Shown: positions 6,282 through 13,758 of the stretch, one piece after another
How positions within the stretch are numbered: position 1 is the stretch's first letter
Layout of the letters: each line of letters opens with the position of its first letter
Assembly (NCBI GenBank): GCA_903870245.1
Contig: CAIQCB010000016.1
Span: 1-42,138, forward strand
Length of the DNA stretch: 42,138 nt
Reading direction: 5' to 3'
DNA from: an uncultured Methylocystaceae bacterium
GTDB lineage: Bacteria; Pseudomonadota; Alphaproteobacteria; Rhizobiales; Beijerinckiaceae
Made by a program: the position numbers and the translations under genes
The notes under the pieces: generated by a model
What the model saw: the letters and a program-made list of their open reading frames with translations, nothing else
Told to the model about the DNA's origin: nothing
Database searches by the model: none

Positions 6282-6357
6282 GGGGCTGTAGCTCAGATGG
6301 GAGAGCGCTGCAATCGCACTGCAGAGGTCGGGGGTTCGAATCCCCCCAGCTCCACCA
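6282..6357 (+). tRNA. tRNA-Ala, anticodon CGC
   Basis: A 76-base cloverleaf with a 7-bp acceptor stem (GGGGCTG/CAGCTCC, one G-T pair), D-arm GCTC/GAGC, anticodon stem CTGCA/TGCAG with loop ATCGCAC, and T-arm GGGGG/CCCCC around TTCGAAT. CCA is encoded. The anticodon CGC is at 6315-6317 and reads the GCG codon. The sequence downstream is AT-richer and gene-poor for about 1 kb, which is typical of integration next to a tRNA 3' end, but I found no second copy of the 3' end within the window. Confidence 0.97.
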
Positions 6358-7402
6358 ATTAAAACAATATATTACATATGCAGCTTTGGCGCCGCCTCGC
6401 TTGGCGACCCGTGGTTACACATAGCGTTTGATCCGGGTTGGCGGCGAAGCCATTGCGCATATGAACCATGATCACGATCCTTAAAGGCCCGGACGCCTGA
6501 GCATGGCCACTCCGGATTTTTTGCCGACGCCTCCTCTCAGGGGGCTGATGAATTTATCCGGGGGAGCCGGATTTGCGGGCGGCAGATTGCACCGGGCGCC
6601 GCGTCTGACGGTTACACTTTCGTCCAGCCAGTCGATTCCGACGCCGCCGCCCGGAAATCAACGGCGTATCATTTAGGAAGCTGTTTGAGCATGCGATCCC
6701 AGAAGACGCGCTAATCTCATTAGCCGACCAGAGATATGCCGATATTTATGATTAGCTGTATAATTTAGCGTTGCTCAGCTTCGAGCCTCGCAGATTTTCC
6801 TCACGCCGGGCACCCAAAAAAGGGTTGGCTCAACCACAATGAGCAATGAATGATTTTAGTCATTCGACTGATGATCCCGGCAGATATTTCCAAGAGCGCT
6901 CCTGCACTATCAGCCTGGGTTCATGCTTGTTGGTGGATGGTCTGACAACTTGCATCATCATGCAAACTGCTGTTGTGTGTATATATTCGAGTTTAATATA
7001 TTGGAAAGGACATGAATTGAAAGATTTCTCAAATCCTTCGGTTAACTCACTTTCTGCCAGAGAATTGCAAAATTTAATTAGTAAAATCAAGCAGCATTCT
7101 CCGAGCGAATTATGGTTATCCTCAAGTTGGCATGTGCTGAGCAGCACATATTTTATGATTAAATAAGCATTTAAGTCACTGTTAGCTAATGAAGCGTCGC
7201 ACCCAATTAACTGGGCAAAGACGTTAATGACCAGAACTTTCAATCAACTACACCATCTGGCAATGATAGCTTTGAATTCATCATCAACCTGAATTCAGCC
7301 GGCTTCCCAGGTGTTAGGGGTGAATTTCTGACTCAAAATCAGCTGGTTATAAATGACTTATGCCGAATTTTATCGTTTCCTCGCCTATCGGAGATGGATC
7401 TA
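6358..7402. other. Gene-poor, AT-rich stretch downstream of tRNA-Ala
   Basis: About 1 kb with no gene I can defend. 6358-6720 is GC-rich and looks like worn coding sequence: one short frame at 6431-6478 translates to IRVGGEAIAHMNHDHD, faintly like the HMNxDH signature of heme-utilisation (DUF2470) proteins. 6720-7400 is AT-rich. Two overlapping open frames on opposite strands (6846-7166 and 6860-7243) show no domain, signal peptide or biased codon use. The last part probably holds the promoter of the downstream cassette. Confidence 0.5.
7273..7297. promoter_or_regulatory. Paired TGAATTCA palindromes upstream of the GNAT/radical SAM cassette
   Basis: The 8-base palindrome TGAATTCA occurs at 7273-7280 and again at 7290-7297. 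The centres are 17 bases apart, between one and two helical turns. They lie about 105 bases before the candidate peptide start at 7403. A TATAAAT element follows at about 7348. Such paired palindromes can be operator half-sites; no regulator gene is nearby, so the role is inferred. Confidence 0.3.
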
Positions 7403-7522
7403 ATGCCAAATAACAACTCTGATCCTGTTGAGATCGAAGCGGAGCACATCGATAAATCAATTATTATCTGTCCTGTAAGCGCCAGGGGCGCATCACACGC
7501 CCATGCATCTCATCTCTGTTAG
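7403..7522 (+). CDS. Candidate 39-residue peptide upstream of GNAT and radical SAM genes
   Basis: The frame starts ATG at 7403 with GGAG nine bases upstream and ends TAG at 7520. The N-half (MPNNNSDPVEIEAEHIDKS) is acidic and leader-like. A hydrophobic III leads into a C-half with Cys23, an Arg-Gly-Ala stretch, the mirror-symmetric SHAHASH (residues 31-37) and a terminal Leu-Cys39. An acidic leader, a Cys/Ser/His-rich tail and two modification-type enzymes immediately downstream (62 bases to the GNAT start) are the layout of a ribosomally made, post-translationally modified peptide. I recognise no known precursor family. A frame of this size can arise by chance, so both its reality and its function are uncertain. 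Confidence 0.35.
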   Translation: MPNNNSDPVEIEAEHIDKSIIICPVSARGASHAHASHLC

Positions 7523-7584
7523 ATACTTCTGATGCGCACTCCTGGAGAACGGCGGAAAACTGGCTGACATCGCAAACGGAGTGG

Positions 7585-8307
7585 ATGATGCAAACTCGTT
7601 TAGCAGTAGAAACTGACTTGCCTGCTATAATGAAAATAGAGAAAGAGTCTTTCGGCAAGCATGTGGGCGCCGAGGGCATGGCGCTTGAAGACATCATGCG
7701 TCAGCGCATACAAATTTGCAACAGCGTGTCTCCTGGTTGGTTTTGGGTGGCGGAGACAGACGAATCTTTATGCGGATATATTGTGCTCCAGCCGACAGAA
7801 TTGTCTATATCCCAATGTGTTTCTTGGGACGTTGCAACTGACCATGGCACACTCCGTTCGACATTTTCAGTCGGCGGCGAAACTGTTTTTGGTGTGTCTA
7901 TGGGAGTTGCAACGCGGGCGCCATCGGGGGCTTTTTATTCGCTCTTGCAACGAACCATCCTGCAAACGCTGCGTACCGGGAAAACCCGGTTGATGCTCTG
8001 TTCGCGCCTGCCAAACTTGAAGAGAGAAGCCGAAAGGGGTGTGCCGCCTGAAATCTACTGGAAACTCACAGACCCTGACGGCTTACCGTGCGATAGACTT
8101 TTAAGGAAGTTTTATTCCGCCTTTGGCGTGGGTCCAATTGCATTTTTGCGGGACGGATGGCCAGTCGATGTTGACTCAGGAGGGCATGCGGCGCTCGTTG
8201 TGGTCGAAGACTTGTTTTTGTCTCTCGAGCATCTTGCTCAAAGGCTTTATGCATCGGGTAAAAAAGACGCAGAGAGATCATTAAAGGAGTCAACCCATGA
8301 ACCATGA
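7585..8307 (+). CDS. GNAT-fold N-acetyltransferase (divergent)
   Basis: A 240-residue protein. The N-terminus TRLAVETDLPAIMKIEKESF is the usual GNAT first strand and helix. Residues 101-120 (VFGVSMGVATRAPSGAFYSL) occupy the place of motif A; RAPSGA at 111-116 is a degenerate form of the R/Q-x-x-G-x-G/A acetyl-CoA loop, with Ser at the first Gly. Near residue 175 FYSAFGVGP, then SGGHAALVVVEDLF, resembles motif B. An insertion of about 50 residues after motif A and a C-terminal helix make it longer than simple GNATs. GGAG precedes a double ATG (7585/7588); the second is better spaced. It overlaps the radical SAM gene by 11 bases, so the two are translationally coupled. The substrate is unknown. 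Confidence 0.75.
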   Translation: MMQTRLAVETDLPAIMKIEKESFGKHVGAEGMALEDIMRQRIQICNSVSPGWFWVAETDESLCGYIVLQPTELSISQCVSWDVATDHGTLRSTFSVGGETVFGVSMGVATRAPSGAFYSLLQRTILQTLRTGKTRLMLCSRLPNLKREAERGVPPEIYWKLTDPDGLPCDRLLRKFYSAFGVGPIAFLRDGWPVDVDSGGHAALVVVEDLFLSLEHLAQRLYASGKKDAERSLKESTHEP

Positions 8308-9358
8308 TCTCGATAACGAAAAGCTTCAGTATTTAAACGGTGGCAGACGCCAATGGTGGGACATTGGTGAAAAGCGTCTGGTTTCTTCAGCGACTGCATA
8401 CATTCAGTATGGATGTCCCGATTGGGGAGAAACAAACGGCGAGAGAAACTCTCTTTGTCAATTTTGCGGGTTTCCAAATGGAGTCCGGATTTACCGGGAT
8501 CTATACTATGGCGGCGCTTCGATTCCACCCGAAGATCATCTCCGGCTCTTTGAAAAGACATTAAAATATTTTGAGCGTGAAGGAGAAATCCACACGCTTA
8601 TGATTTTCAATGCGGGAAGTTTTACGGCCATGCCTCTCCCACTTCAGGAAAGCCTTATGCGGACCGCGATTGCCGTGCAGGGTGTGCGCAGGGTGGTCAT
8701 CGAATCCCGTGCGCCATTAATATCAGAAAGGCTGATAGAGCCTCTGGCACAAATCACACGAAACTCGGGCGTTTCGTTGACAGTCCGCATCGGTATAGAA
8801 ACAAAGGACGATCGACTGCGACTCAAAGTCCTGAAAAAGGGCCACAGCCGCACTCAACTGAGTGCTGCTAGTATTCTGTTGCGGAAGCAGGGCGTGACCT
8901 CCGGCGGATACGTCATGCTAAAACCCTCTCCCGGCCTGGATCCCGCATGGTCAGTGAAGGAAACAATCGACACAATAAAGTGGATTTTAGCAGATGATGG
9001 TCTCGGCATGGACGAGATCTATCTCGGTCCCACATGCGTGAGCCCGGATACTCCCCTGTCAAGACACTGGCAAGCAGGAGATTTTACTCCCCCTTCGCTC
9101 TGGAACGTCTATGACGTGCTTGCCACGACGGCAGGACGATTCCCCGGAAGGATTCATCTGCTGCAGTTCAAAGATGAGCCGCCGTTTGTGGCTGTCCCGT
9201 CAAACCATGTTCCGCGCGGTCTACCACAATCGTTGGAAGGCATCAAAGGATGCGATGCGGAATTCCATTCAATGTTCGATAACTATCGGGCCAGCATGAA
9301 ACCTGATGCGCTCCGCGATATTGCCTGTTCCTGCAGGCAAAATCATCGGGCTATGTAA
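8297..9358 (+). CDS. Radical SAM protein, Elp3/RaSEA-like (extended Cys motif)
   Basis: A 353-residue protein. Cys40, Cys54 and Cys57 (YGC, then LCQFCGF) form a CX13CX2C cluster motif rather than the standard CX3CX2C. This wide first gap is what I know from the Elp3-related radical SAM group that includes archaeosine synthase RaSEA. LMIFNAGSF, VVIESRAPLISERL, VRIGIETKDDRLRL and GGYVMLKPSP follow the order of the SAM-binding barrel strands in that group. The C-terminus carries CSC, reminiscent of the CxC end of RaSEA-like proteins. AAAGGAG lies seven bases before the ATG. It overlaps the GNAT gene, so the two enzymes probably act together. The substrate (tRNA, peptide or small molecule) cannot be read from sequence. 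Confidence 0.82.
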   Translation: MNHDLDNEKLQYLNGGRRQWWDIGEKRLVSSATAYIQYGCPDWGETNGERNSLCQFCGFPNGVRIYRDLYYGGASIPPEDHLRLFEKTLKYFEREGEIHTLMIFNAGSFTAMPLPLQESLMRTAIAVQGVRRVVIESRAPLISERLIEPLAQITRNSGVSLTVRIGIETKDDRLRLKVLKKGHSRTQLSAASILLRKQGVTSGGYVMLKPSPGLDPAWSVKETIDTIKWILADDGLGMDEIYLGPTCVSPDTPLSRHWQAGDFTPPSLWNVYDVLATTAGRFPGRIHLLQFKDEPPFVAVPSNHVPRGLPQSLEGIKGCDAEFHSMFDNYRASMKPDALRDIACSCRQNHRAM

Positions 9359-9731
9359 AACCTAAATGCTCGGCAGAAGGTAGTGCACATTGAATATTTC
9401 CTTTCTGTTGAACCATCAGCAGGAAGGATAAATCATATGAGTTCGGAGTTTCTCACAAAAGCCTTGCAGATCAGGATTTAGTCGACTTATGACCCAGGGA
9501 GTTTTGTTACTGACTTAACGCAACGTTATCTCCTAGTTGATCATCAACAATGCCACCATGATCTTGCAGATTTGACAATGCCTCAGACGCTCCGATTTAT
9601 CTTTACATCTATTTTCAGTTCGAAGGCTTGATCAGCAAGTTGTCGGAGTTTTCAGGGCCAATTCTCTTTAAGAATTTGGCGGCTCAGCCAATCGGACCGA
9701 GAGCCGCCTAATCTCGTGAATAACATGTCAT
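9359..9731. other. Intergenic region after the radical SAM gene
   Basis: No gene is seen. There is a 13-base inverted repeat GTTGAT-C-ATCAAC at 9536-9548 and a longer hairpin at 9678-9708 (listed separately). The base composition is AT-rich like the upstream gap, suggesting that both belong to the same inserted stretch. Confidence 0.5.
9678..9708. terminator. Hairpin between convergent radical SAM and barrel-protein genes
   Basis: GGCGGCTC (9678-9685) pairs perfectly with GAGCCGCC (9701-9708) over a 15-base spacer that itself contains TCGG/CCGA. It sits about 24 bases from the stop of the minus-strand gene. No strong T-run follows on either side, so it may be a weak or Rho-assisted terminator. 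Confidence 0.5.
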
Positions 9732-10007
9732 TCAGCTGCTGTAGCCGTATACGATATCGCCAATTACGCCTGCTTCCTGCCGGATAGCCTTCAGAGCGTC
9801 TGATTCCATCCACTGCGATGCAATGTCCCTCGATTCAATATCGAAAATCATTGCCACATGATTCGGGTTTTCAACGCTTCTGAAAACATGTGATCGGATG
9901 AAGCCATATTTCTTTCGCTGCTCCTCATGGCTATCGAATACAGATTTCCATTTTGCGAAGTCTTTCACGTCGATTTCTTCGAAAATCATCTCTTTCCGAA
10001 TAGTCAT
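9732..10007 (-). CDS. Small dimeric alpha-beta-barrel (ABM/cyclase-like) protein
   Basis: A 91-residue protein, MTIRKEMIFEEIDVKDFAKWKS, with a central FIRSHVFRSVENPNHVAMIFDI and a final VYGYSS. The pattern beta-DFxxWK helix-RSHVFRS strand-NPNHVAMIF strand-helix is that of ferredoxin-like dimeric barrels (ABM or DUF1330-like), often annotated as cyclase or quinol monooxygenase. No catalytic residues can be named. GGGAG lies six bases before the ATG at 10007, which favours it over the in-frame ATG six codons upstream. It is monocistronic and convergent with the radical SAM gene. Confidence 0.7.
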   Translation of the reverse strand: MTIRKEMIFEEIDVKDFAKWKSVFDSHEEQRKKYGFIRSHVFRSVENPNHVAMIFDIESRDIASQWMESDALKAIRQEAGVIGDIVYGYSS

Positions 10008-10697
10008 TCTGCTTCTCCCTGACATGCTGCAAAGCAGTTTTTATGGATAAATACATCTTCCCCATTACCTCCCGGGATTCTGTGCTGTATCGCACAGCTG
10101 AAACGATCACTATGTCTCGTTTCTGCGCCCGCAGGACAAGAACCATGGTTGAATAGCGCAATTTTTCTGGTGCATCGTTGTCTTTTAGGAGCGATGATGG
10201 TGCAGAATAACACGCCGGTTAGGAAGTCGTCGGCACTCGTATCTATATGACTTGCGCGCTTAAAGCGCGATCTCCACTCAGCAACTGTCCGCCTGCAATT
10301 CAGCATCCACAAACGACGGTTCCGGGCAACACAAGCACTGCGGGCGAAGTCTGGCGGTACGCGCTTCATGCCCCACTCTGGCAAAAAGATTCATGATAGA
10401 TTGCGACCTCCACTGGTTGTTAAAATTCGATACATACATGTTTATGATTTGAGCAAAAAGATCATAAAAGATTACCAAAAACATCTCAATAATTTAAATG
10501 TCTGTAGTATCGATATATTATATTATCTATTTCATGATGTTGCGTAGCGCTAAACAGCACAGAAAAACGCTGTTGGAGTTTGCAAAAGCATTCAACCGTT
10601 TTTCCGGGGAGGACGTGTGGACTTTCACCTGACTTCATCTAGACATGTTAAAACTGCTGTTTGGCGCCGTTGACCGCCCATGAAGGAGAAAGCGCTC
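10008..10697. other. Long gene-poor region before the DUF1254 pair
   Basis: About 690 bases without a gene I can support. 10026-10400 has short open frames on the minus strand with no domain. 10430-10560 is strikingly AT-rich and precedes the DUF1254 operon, so it likely contains its promoter. I see no clear operator or terminator. Confidence 0.5.
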
Positions 10698-12218
10698 ATG
10701 AATCTAATAGTAAAGCTTACGCTGCCACTCGCAGCGCTTGGCTTTTCGACGCCTCTCCATGCACAGCTCAATCGTTACGTCACATTGGCTAACAGCCCGA
10801 TGGCGGCGAACCGTCCGTCCGTGACGACAGGTAACCTGCTCAGGGACGAGTTACTGTTCCAGCGCGCGACGCAAACCTATTTGTGGGCATTGCCGCTCAT
10901 TAACACGCTCGGCATGAAGTTCGGTTCGGAAAAGGTCTTTGGCGCTGGCTACAACATACTTCCCATATGGAAGAGGAGGCTTGACTCAAATACACTGGTG
11001 ACGACGCCGAATTCGGACGTCCTCTATGCGATGAGCTACGTCGACCTCGGAAAGGATGGCCCGCTAATATTGGAGATCCCGCCGATGTTGCAGGGCATAC
11101 TGCTGGACTTCTGGCAGCGACCCATTCCCGTCGACGGCGGCAAATTCATGGGCGATGTTGGACTGGCCGGACCCGACGGCGGAAAAGGCGGTAAATTCCT
11201 GTTATTGCCGCCCGGCTACAAGGGCGAACTTCCCGAGGGCTATTATGTCTATCGTTCCGCGACCAACAATGTCTTCATCTTTTTGCGCGGATTTTATGAT
11301 GATCCGAAAAATCTAACGCCAGCCGTCGTGCATCTGGAAAAAACGAAAATCTATCCACTTGATGGCGAAAAGAACGTCAAGCCGATGAAATTCCCTGACG
11401 CCTCAGGCGTCCCTGCCGATATGCTTCCGGTCAGTGACGGCCGCGCATTTGATCAATTGAAGCAATTGGTCGACAGCGAAGGAGCCGCATTGGCTAGCTC
11501 AGATGGTCTTGGCATGCTTGCGTCGGTCGGTATCATCAAAGACCGTCCCTTTGCGCCTGATGCGAAAACACGTGACATACTTAATCAAGGCGCAAAGACA
11601 GCTTACAAGATGAGCCGTGTCATCGGTTTCGAAGATAAGCTGAGCGGCAGCTCTCTGAGGATTTACCCGGATCGGCGCTGGTTGAACCCGATGGACAACG
11701 CCACCCCACAAAGCCAGGCAACTGAGATGGACCTTTCCTTTGTGAATAAAGCCGACGGATATCTGGCGCTGGACCCAAGGATTTGGTTCTTCACAAATTA
11801 CTACTCGATCAGCCCTGGAATGATGTCCAGGACGCCGGGCAAAGGCGCCGGGTATATGATCGCCTTTACTGATAATTCGGACAAACCACTTGTCGGCGGA
11901 AACAATTATCGCCTGAACTTGCCTGCAAACATCCCGGCGGCAAACTTTTGGTCCGTAACGCTCTACGAAGCCGAGAACGGCTCGGGTTTGGCCAATGGTC
12001 AACCCTTTCCATCGCTTGGATCGCGGGATAAGCTCAAACAGAACGCCGATGGCGGCACAGACCTTTATTTCGGCCCGAGGGCGCCTGAAGGCAACAAGGC
12101 GAATTGGCTCGCGACTGTTCCGGGAAAAGGCTTTTTCGCAATCATCAGGCTTTACGGCCCAACCGAGGCTGCGATCAACAAGAGCTGGAAGCCCGGCGAC
12201 ATTGTGAAAATGAGATAA
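10698..12218 (+). CDS. Exported DUF1254/DUF1214 protein (first of tandem pair)
   Basis: A 506-residue protein with a Sec signal peptide (MNLIVKLTLPLAALGFSTPL, cleavage near HAQ). The DUF1254 domain runs from about residue 45 (RATQTYLWALPL, TTPNSDVLYAMSYVDL, LLDFWQRPI). The DUF1214 domain at the C-end has AANFWSVTLYEAENG, GGTDLYFGP and GFFAIIRLYGPTEA. DUF1254/DUF1214 proteins are periplasmic, of unknown chemistry. AAGGAG nine bases before the ATG at 10698 selects this start over the upstream ATG at 10680. The second copy follows after 67 bases. No other partner points to a function. Confidence 0.9.
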   Translation: MNLIVKLTLPLAALGFSTPLHAQLNRYVTLANSPMAANRPSVTTGNLLRDELLFQRATQTYLWALPLINTLGMKFGSEKVFGAGYNILPIWKRRLDSNTLVTTPNSDVLYAMSYVDLGKDGPLILEIPPMLQGILLDFWQRPIPVDGGKFMGDVGLAGPDGGKGGKFLLLPPGYKGELPEGYYVYRSATNNVFIFLRGFYDDPKNLTPAVVHLEKTKIYPLDGEKNVKPMKFPDASGVPADMLPVSDGRAFDQLKQLVDSEGAALASSDGLGMLASVGIIKDRPFAPDAKTRDILNQGAKTAYKMSRVIGFEDKLSGSSLRIYPDRRWLNPMDNATPQSQATEMDLSFVNKADGYLALDPRIWFFTNYYSISPGMMSRTPGKGAGYMIAFTDNSDKPLVGGNNYRLNLPANIPAANFWSVTLYEAENGSGLANGQPFPSLGSRDKLKQNADGGTDLYFGPRAPEGNKANWLATVPGKGFFAIIRLYGPTEAAINKSWKPGDIVKMR

Positions 12219-12285
12219 CTCGACAAAAGCGCTGCCGTCGCACATGGCGGCACTGAGATCGTTCTCAATTCAATGAGAAAGCACG

Positions 12286-13758
12286 ATGAAAGCCGTCCAA
12301 CAGAAGAATCTCTTTGCCGCAGCCTTCACCTGCATTCTGTCCATATCAACTGCTCAGGGGCAACAACTACCAACCACCGGCGTCGTCAATTCACTGGTCG
12401 GAAAACTCACATTCAAAAACGGCTATCCAACCGACGCCACGGTTTTGAAGCTCTTCGACGATATTGACATGCAGCGGGCTACGCAAACATATCTGTGGGC
12501 TCTCCCCTTGATGGCTATGCACCAATGGCAAAATGAACAGCGCGACAAATTTGGCGCAGGAAATCTGGATTACGTTGATTACTTCACTTTCACCGACAAG
12601 CTCGGATTACTTACGGCCAATGCGACAACGCCCTACATCATGGCTTTTCCCAACCTGAAGGAAAGCGGTCCTCTGGTCATGGAGGTTCCGCCGGGTCCAA
12701 CCGCAGGCGGCGTTACGGATTTCTGGCAACGTCCGTTGAGCGATAGTGGTCAGACCGGACCCGACAAGGGAAAGGGAGGCAAGTATCTCGTGCTTGGTCC
12801 TGATGATCCCGACATCAAACCGGAGGGCTATTTTGTTGTCCGCTCCCCCACGGTCAATGTCTGGATGGCGCATCGCGCACTTGATCCAGATCCTGTCAAG
12901 GCCAAGGCAACGGCGGCCGCGTTACGACTTTATCCTTACAGCCAACGCGACAACCCTCCACCCACACGACACCTGACTCCCGACGGTCGGAGATGGAGTG
13001 GTATGCAGCCTCATGGACTGGCGTATTGGGAAGGACTTTCGAAGGTTATCGACGAAGAGCCGATCCTTGAACGAGATCGCATGATGTTCGGCATGTTACA
13101 GCCCCTTGGCATTGAAAAAGGTAAGCCCTTCAAGCCGAATGATCGTCAGAAGAAAATACTGTCCGGGGCAACGCTGGTGGGCGAAGCCATGGCTCGAACC
13201 ATCGGCTACGCCAAACGCTTCGAGGGTGTGAAAGTATGGCCGGGAAAGCAGTGGGACATTTCCCTTTATCTGAAAGAGACGACACAGGAAGCGCCTACCC
13301 ACACCCAATTGGACGAACGAACGTCATGGTTCTACGAGGCGGTAGGCGTTTCGGCGGGTATGATGGGGCGCACGGTTGGCGCAGGGCAGGTCTATCTCGA
13401 AGCGTCAAGGGACAGGGACGATCATTGGCTTGACGGCAGTAAGTCCTATCGCCTGCGCGTCCCGCCAGATGCGCCGGTAGCGCAGTTCTGGTCCTTTACC
13501 GTTTACGATAATGAGTCGCGCTGTTTCGTCGATACAGGCGCGCCGCCAGATCGTTCCTCTCGTGACAACATCGCAAAAAACGCTGATGGCTCGGTCGATC
13601 TTTATTTTGGACCGAAGCCACCGACAGGTAAGCCGATGACAAACTGGATCAAGACCATACCGGGCAAAGGGTGGTTTACGTACTTCAGGCTCTACGGTCC
13701 GACACAGGCGTATTTCGACAGGAGTTGGGTGCTCCCGGACATCGAGGCGCTCAAGTGA
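12286..13758 (+). CDS. Exported DUF1254/DUF1214 protein (second of tandem pair)
   Basis: A 490-residue paralogue of the preceding gene. The signal peptide is MKAVQQKNLFAAAFTCILSI with cleavage near AQG. It shares RATQTYLWALPL exactly with its neighbour, and also DFWQRPL, DLYFGPKPP, GKGWFTYFRLYGPT and a final helix ending PDIEALK. Outside these blocks the two differ strongly, so the duplication is old or the copies were gained separately. The order and spacing suggest one transcript. Both proteins are predicted periplasmic and may form a mixed complex; this is inference. Confidence 0.9.
   Translation: MKAVQQKNLFAAAFTCILSISTAQGQQLPTTGVVNSLVGKLTFKNGYPTDATVLKLFDDIDMQRATQTYLWALPLMAMHQWQNEQRDKFGAGNLDYVDYFTFTDKLGLLTANATTPYIMAFPNLKESGPLVMEVPPGPTAGGVTDFWQRPLSDSGQTGPDKGKGGKYLVLGPDDPDIKPEGYFVVRSPTVNVWMAHRALDPDPVKAKATAAALRLYPYSQRDNPPPTRHLTPDGRRWSGMQPHGLAYWEGLSKVIDEEPILERDRMMFGMLQPLGIEKGKPFKPNDRQKKILSGATLVGEAMARTIGYAKRFEGVKVWPGKQWDISLYLKETTQEAPTHTQLDERTSWFYEAVGVSAGMMGRTVGAGQVYLEASRDRDDHWLDGSKSYRLRVPPDAPVAQFWSFTVYDNESRCFVDTGAPPDRSSRDNIAKNADGSVDLYFGPKPPTGKPMTNWIKTIPGKGWFTYFRLYGPTQAYFDRSWVLPDIEALK

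What the first reader, a model, noticed from the sequence alone, without database searches (positions are those of the whole stretch)
7403..9358. Candidate peptide-GNAT-radical SAM cassette beside a tRNA gene
Three plus-strand frames sit together in a gene-poor, AT-rich insert: a 39-codon frame with a good ribosome-binding sequence, a divergent GNAT enzyme, and a radical SAM protein overlapping it by 11 bases. The layout fits a minimal modified-peptide (RiPP-like) or small-molecule pathway, and no known cassette of this composition comes to mind. No transporter or peptidase is adjacent, so it may be intracellular or use host functions.
Basis: partly seen in the sequence, partly recalled or inferred. 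Interest (0 to 1): 0.75.

Follow-up and report, generated by a model that had tools for sequence, protein, structure and literature searches.

The report
Overlapping acyltransferase and radical-enzyme gene pair
Next to a transfer-RNA gene sits a rare two-gene unit, an unusual acyl-transferring enzyme and a free-radical enzyme related to RNA-modifying enzymes; the small peptide proposed beside them is probably not a real gene, so this looks like an uncharacterised enzyme pair and not a modified-peptide pathway.

Summary
The two larger genes are real. A divergent GNAT (7585-8307) overlaps by 11 bases a radical SAM enzyme (rSAM, 8297-9358) with its own ribosome-binding sequence, in AT-rich DNA after tRNA-Ala(CGC). 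The rSAM lies in the archaeosine-synthesis RaSEA/Elp3 clade but below every family cut-off; its best solved relatives are Elp3. The GNAT matches no NCBIfam model. Its best relative found is the C-terminal region of a cyanobacterial polyketide synthase, then GNAT/nitrilase fusions. The pair is rare: of 297 genomes sampled in the order, two carry the rSAM and three the GNAT family. The one other rSAM genome also carries the GNAT, 3.8 kb away. The 39-codon frame is unsupported: 22% of simulated sequences give one, and the second locus has none. Best reading: an accessory two-enzyme unit in which the GNAT acylates a small molecule or nucleoside and the rSAM does radical chemistry on the same substrate. 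It does not pass as a RiPP cassette, a RaSEA or an Elp3. New variant of a known kind; substrate unknown.

The parts
6282..6357 (+). tRNA-Ala (CGC); marks the left edge of the AT-rich stretch
   Evidence: ARAGORN, Rfam tRNA 66.5 bits. A tRNA-Ala(CGC) lies near the same MaoC-type gene in 9 of 9 same-genus stretches, with different DNA after it.
7403..7522 (+). 39-codon frame of the finding; probably a chance frame or remnant, not a precursor peptide
   Evidence: Open frame runs from 7211; 22% of simulated sequences give such a frame. No counterpart at the second locus; no plasmid match for the longer frame.
7585..8307 (+). Divergent GNAT-type acyltransferase, 240 aa
   Evidence: Pfam Acetyltransf_9 only E 0.094; no NCBIfam match at E up to 1. 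34% identity over 84% to the C-terminal region of a Dolichospermum polyketide synthase, E 3e-23. Weaker relatives: GNAT domains fused to carbon-nitrogen hydrolases, about 23%. D-x-D-S-G-G-H-A motif shared with the synthase and L017/L018.
8283..8289 (+). Ribosome-binding sequence AAAGGAG of the rSAM gene, inside the GNAT gene
   Evidence: Read from sequence.
8297..9358 (+). Radical SAM enzyme of the RaSEA/Elp3 clade, 353 aa
8414..8467 (+). Cluster-binding motif C40-X13-C54-X2-C57 (CPDWGETNGERNSLCQFC)
   Evidence: Homologs: C-X10-C-X2-C in G633 and G796, C-X7-C-X2-C in L002, C-X4-C-X2-C in the Streptomyces F8 protein.
9251..9334 (+). C-terminal cysteines C319, C344, C346 (possible metal site, inferred)
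   Evidence: Invariant in alignments A4 (8 rows) and A7 (6 rows).

Best explanation
This is a rare, probably horizontally acquired two-gene unit. A divergent GNAT (acyltransferase family) and a RaSEA/Elp3-clade radical SAM enzyme are probably translated together and work as partners on one non-peptide substrate. Shown: intact overlapping genes, family placement, rarity in the samples searched, and co-location of the same two families in a second genome. Inferred: the GNAT moves an acyl group from CoA or a carrier protein onto an amine of a small metabolite or nucleoside. The rSAM then cleaves SAM and abstracts a hydrogen from that conjugate, rearranging or fragmenting it, as RaSEA acts after ArcS. 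The short upstream frame is not part of it.
For: Overlapping genes with an internal ribosome-binding sequence. The rSAM belongs to the RaSEA/Elp3 clade by profile, PDB profile search and fold; it groups with the G633 rSAM at 94/93. Of 297 genomes sampled in the order the rSAM occurs in 2 (E up to 1e-7) and the GNAT family in 3 (E up to 1e-3). The single other rSAM genome, G633, is one of those 3, with the GNAT 3823 bp from the rSAM. If independent, that chance is about 2/296 times 0.002, or 1.5e-5 (post hoc, one event). In published work RaSEA forms a complex with ArcS, which first adds lysine to the base (PMC11298593, passages). GNAT relatives sit in polyketide-synthase and carbon-nitrogen-hydrolase contexts, which favours small molecules.
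Against: In G633 the two genes are divergent with a 1171-aa NACHT protein gene between them, so they are not one operon. The G633 GNAT is closer to the nitrilase-fused GNAT L017 (local score 174) than to this GNAT (92). Five genomes and one plasmid carrying other rSAM relatives have no such GNAT (0 of 6). The CoA-binding motif looks degenerate (my reading). The GNAT fold prediction failed (pLDDT 36.8). The window rSAM sits on a long branch. No substrate is identified.
Confidence: 0.42

Rival explanations
1. A split Elp3-like enzyme: the GNAT hands an acetyl or other acyl group to the rSAM, which makes an acyl radical and joins it by a C-C bond to an RNA base or metabolite, as Elp3 does with its fused domains.
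For: rSAM plus GNAT is the Elp3 domain pair; Elp3 is the best fold and PDB-profile relative of the rSAM. Elp3 needs both domains in concert (PMC7663514, passages).
Against: The GNAT does not match the Elp3 model at E up to 1. RaSEA scores higher than Elp3 (74.5 against 26.3 bits). The gene order is reversed (that the KAT domain is C-terminal in Elp3 is recalled). The GNAT's found relatives are polyketide-synthase and nitrilase GNATs.
Confidence: 0.15
2. The two enzymes are unrelated cargo of an accessory region, or leftovers of a larger decayed pathway, and do not act together.
For: AT-rich, 48% coding stretch; the DNA after the tRNA is not shared by 9 same-genus stretches. The G633 genes are not in one operon and its GNAT is a different subgroup.
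Against: The 11-base overlap and internal ribosome-binding sequence here; the improbable co-location in G633; both frames intact.
Confidence: 0.22
3. A minimal RiPP pathway with the 39-residue peptide as substrate.
For: Short frame with GGAG upstream, ending 62 bases before the GNAT.
Against: Frame at chance level; none before the G633 GNAT; no Pfam SPASM match; no transporter or peptidase match among 14 frames scanned in 6358-10679.
Confidence: 0.05
4. A signalling or defence-linked small-molecule module: in G633 the same families flank a NACHT protein and a LuxR-type regulator, so the pair may make a signal or modify nucleotides or tRNA under attack.
For: NACHT domain and a sub-threshold LuxR (GerE) match beside the G633 genes; tRNA-linked variable site.
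Against: No PADLOC match at E up to 1 for either protein; neither the NACHT nor the LuxR-type protein has a relative in the window.
Confidence: 0.1

Closest known systems
RaSEA (TIGR01210), archaeosine-forming radical SAM enzyme
   Same: Best-scoring curated family; long-spaced C-Xn-C-X2-C motif and C-terminal cysteines; the published enzyme works with a partner
   Different: 74.5 bits against a cut-off of 212; the ArcS domain PF17884 is not found in this genome; the neighbour is a GNAT. Other bacterial relatives score 133-173 bits, so the window protein is more divergent than they are
Elp3 (TIGR01211), tRNA U34 radical SAM/acetyltransferase
   Same: rSAM core with the top fold match; rSAM and GNAT work as one unit in Elp3
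   Different: Separate genes; GNAT does not match the Elp3 model; score far below cut-off
GNAT-like C-terminal region of a CyrF-like polyketide synthase, and GNAT/carbon-nitrogen hydrolase proteins
   Same: Closest sequence relatives found for the GNAT; D-x-D-S-G-G-H-A motif shared with the synthase and two of the fusions
   Different: Those GNATs are fused to other enzymes; the synthase plasmid gave no match to this rSAM
Nit1C cluster (nitrilase, radical SAM, GNAT, AIR synthase)
   Same: Published precedent for neighbouring rSAM and GNAT genes (PMC1199592, passages)
   Different: Its rSAM is described as nearest to biotin-synthase-related enzymes; the held rSAM model TIGR04043 did not match here, though it matched another protein (that TIGR04043 is the Nit1C rSAM is recalled)
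Actinobacterial RaSEA-like rSAM, including Streptomyces linear plasmids
   Same: 27-30% identical rSAM
   Different: Own clade with support 100/99; on the two plasmids beside P450, SHMT and glycosyltransferase genes, no GNAT found

Membership tests
RaSEA (TIGR01210) | Score over the curated equivalog cut-off (212 bits) | tested here: not met
   74.5 bits; 75.9 bits in the genome search
RaSEA (TIGR01210) | Partner ArcS encoded in the genome | tested here: not met
   PF17884 absent in 2 of 2 genomes (G000, G633); 3 archaeal control genomes positive. That PF17884 marks ArcS is recalled
RaSEA (TIGR01210) | Three-cysteine cluster motif with CxxC | tested here: met
   C40, C54, C57
Elp3 | Radical SAM and KAT (GNAT) domains in one polypeptide | tested here: not met
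   Two genes, GNAT first
Elp3 | Score over the TIGR01211 cut-off (350 bits) | tested here: not met
   26.3 bits for the rSAM, none for the GNAT
Elp3 | Elp3-type rSAM fold | tested here: inconclusive
Elp3 | Acts on U34 of tRNA | not testable with these tools
   -
RiPP pathway | Conserved precursor peptide gene | tested here: not met
   None beside the one second locus; chance-level frame
RiPP pathway | SPASM-type rSAM, peptidase or transporter nearby | tested here: not met
   Pfam scans of the rSAM and of 13 other frames in 6358-10679; three further short frames overlapping the GNAT or rSAM were not scanned
Nit1C cluster | Nit1C-type rSAM and GNAT families | tested here: not met
   No such NCBIfam model at E up to 1; the library holds TIGR04043; that its name stands for Nit1C, and that a Nit1C GNAT model is held, is recalled
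GNAT superfamily | Acetyltransferase fold and CoA-binding motif | tested here: inconclusive
   Weak Pfam match; relatives carry Acetyltransf_1 over its cut-off; fold prediction failed

The most novel reading that the evidence does not exclude
A mobile, two-protein counterpart of Elp3 or RaSEA: a GNAT supplies an acyl group and a separate RaSEA/Elp3-clade radical enzyme attaches or remodels it by radical chemistry on an RNA base or small molecule, a two-subunit radical acyl-transfer system that my searches found no description of in bacteria.
Probability: 0.15. Interest if true: 0.75.

Novelty: new variant of a known kind. Interest (0 to 1): 0.42.

Why it matters
Elp3 and RaSEA are unusual because radical chemistry is tied to a second activity that supplies the group being moved. 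A bacterial pair with the two activities on separate, overlapping genes would let each half be tested alone. It could also uncover a new modified nucleoside or metabolite.

Tried and rejected
RiPP reading: rejected as main explanation. Archaeosine pathway: rejected, no ArcS domain found. Nit1C: no model match. Known defence family: no PADLOC match. Viral origin: five viral-contig scans with rSAM or GNAT queries gave no relative; the phage collection gave none for the rSAM. Plasmid DNA similarity to 6600-10600: none at E up to 1e-5. A repeat of the tRNA end marking an integration end in the window: none by ungapped match; the edges of the insert were not proved. GNAT fold from a single sequence: failed (pLDDT 36.8), so no fold search was run on it. 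Genome-wide pattern scan for W[QR]AG-x-[FY]-x-PP-x-LW: 13 loci, 9 encoding rSAM relatives at 27-30% identity over the aligned parts and 4 without a confirmed match; no GNAT match in the 13. That pattern would miss the G633 type, whose motif reads YQNG, so it does not prove rarity. Class-level search: 2 of 289, the other being one domain of a 1552-aa fusion protein. G796 carries a 63% identical but broken-off rSAM on a 5-kb contig, uninformative about neighbours.

A first tree (16 rows) wrongly included the L009 frame, which is a PutA proline dehydrogenase. I rebuilt it without L009: with 17 rows including the very divergent L006 and G999 the window and G633 rSAMs still group, with L006, at 90/90; with 15 rows, without these and the partial G796, at 94/93, down from 97/94. 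The G320 match counted is this same PutA, so at least one of the 12 there is false. Relatives left out: L004, L005, L006, L009, L011, L012, L023, L025, L027, L069, L075.

Literature: no paper held radical SAM, GNAT and RaSEA together or TIGR01210 with radical SAM and acetyltransferase; a COG1244 search gave none. Only these open-access searches back any statement about print.

Full report
Observation. The window holds two intact plus-strand genes after tRNA-Ala(CGC): a 240-aa GNAT-like frame at 7585-8307 and a 353-aa radical SAM frame at 8297-9358, overlapping by 11 bases, with AAAGGAG before the second start. The stretch 6358-10679 is 47.8% GC against 58.9% elsewhere in the window and 48% coding by my count. 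The 39-codon frame is present, but its reading frame is open from 7211 and has an in-frame ATG at 7394. In 2000 simulated sequences of the same first-order composition, 22% had at least one ATG frame that long with a ribosome-binding-like site.

The GNAT. It has no NCBIfam match at E up to 1 and only a marginal Pfam match. Its best relative found is the C-terminal region of a Dolichospermum plasmid polyketide synthase (34% identity, E 3e-23). That gene's neighbours (amidohydrolases, 2OG oxygenase, MATE transporter, sulfotransferase, adenylyl-sulfate kinase) look like a cylindrospermopsin cluster; that label is recalled, not tested. Next come GNAT domains of proteins with a carbon-nitrogen hydrolase domain (domains confirmed for L017, L020 and L072). 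The D-x-D-S-G-G-H-A motif is in this GNAT, the synthase and L017/L018; it is changed in L020 and G633. The CoA-binding motif of this GNAT and of the synthase domain looks degenerate next to the fused GNATs (my reading).

Distribution. The rSAM was found in 1 of 101 relatives searched, the home genome. In 398 genomes of the phylum there were 12 matches at E up to 1e-3; all but its own are weak (best 7.5e-7), and at least one is false. In 297 genomes of the order there were 2 at E up to 1e-7. In 289 genomes of the class there were 2 at E up to 1e-10, the other a domain of a large fusion protein. In 103 genomes of G633's family there were 2 with the G633 protein as query. These samples overlap. 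The GNAT profile hit 5 of 398 (phylum) and 3 of 297 (order). Five genomes and one plasmid with other rSAM relatives lack the GNAT.

Second locus. G633 (same order) carries a 30% identical rSAM that groups with the window protein at 94/93 support; both branches are long, and support was 97/94 and 90/90 in trees with other rows. A GNAT found by the GNAT profile (E 3.5e-10) lies 3823 bp away. The order is: rSAM and a 1171-aa NACHT protein on the minus strand, then GNAT and a LuxR-type regulator (GerE match below cut-off) on the plus strand. If independent, this co-location has a chance near 1.5e-5, but it is one event examined after the fact. The G633 GNAT is more like a nitrilase-fused GNAT than like the window GNAT. 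No plus-strand frame of 20 or more codons starts in the 200 bases before the G633 GNAT, and the peptide finds no relative there.

Context. A tRNA-Ala(CGC) lies near the same MaoC-type gene in 9 of 9 same-genus stretches fetched: within about 1.1 kb in eight and about 4 kb away in one. No window frame of 60 aa or more from beyond position 6400 was found in those stretches of 4.9-19.8 kb at E up to 1e-6. One relative has two tRNA-Ala(CGC) copies about 5.5 kb apart. This fits a variable site. No integrase was among the 36 window frames scanned with Pfam, and no tRNA-end repeat was found.

Mechanism. RaSEA works in a complex with ArcS, which first attaches lysine to the base that RaSEA then processes (PMC11298593, passages). 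Elp3 couples a KAT domain to an rSAM domain and is proposed to add an acetyl radical to U34 (PMC7663514, passages). By analogy, the GNAT here would acylate a substrate and the rSAM would act on that conjugate. The analogy is inference. The ArcS domain is not found, the GNAT does not match the Elp3 model, and no substrate is known.

Verdict. A real, rare GNAT-rSAM pair of the RaSEA/Elp3 clade; the peptide is not supported; function open. New variant of a known kind.

Noticed in passing
L013:9962-10693: The C-terminal 244 residues of a CyrF-like polyketide synthase are a GNAT relative, whereas the review passage I saw calls CyrF a minimal KS-AT-ACP enzyme (PMC2885083).
   Followed up: partly
L075:5864-10522: A 1552-aa protein in a 1.5-Mb genome (G999) joins a variant radical SAM domain (over its cut-off), a RaSEA-like one and weak nitroreductase and ATP-grasp-type matches, all in one chain.
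   Followed up: partly
L066:9656-16363: NACHT protein with rSAM on one strand and GNAT with LuxR-type regulator on the other: a possible signalling or defence arrangement.
   Followed up: partly
window 6282-6357; L056:12971-18611: tRNA-Ala(CGC) looks like a variable site across the genus; one relative has two copies about 5.5 kb apart.
   Followed up: partly
window 7211-7522: A 103-codon open frame without an ATG, GTG or TTG until 7394 may be a gene remnant; no Pfam or plasmid match.
   Followed up: partly
window 9732-10025: Minus-strand 97-aa frame with a weak antibiotic-biosynthesis-monooxygenase match (E 0.0009), downstream of the rSAM.
   Followed up: no
L014:7791-16690; L015:5791-12690: Streptomyces linear plasmids carry a RaSEA-like rSAM followed by P450, SHMT, glycosyltransferase and carbamoyltransferase genes: an apparent pathway I did not look up.
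   Followed up: no
window 10680-13758: Two tandem DUF1254/DUF1214 proteins directly after the AT-rich stretch.
   Followed up: no
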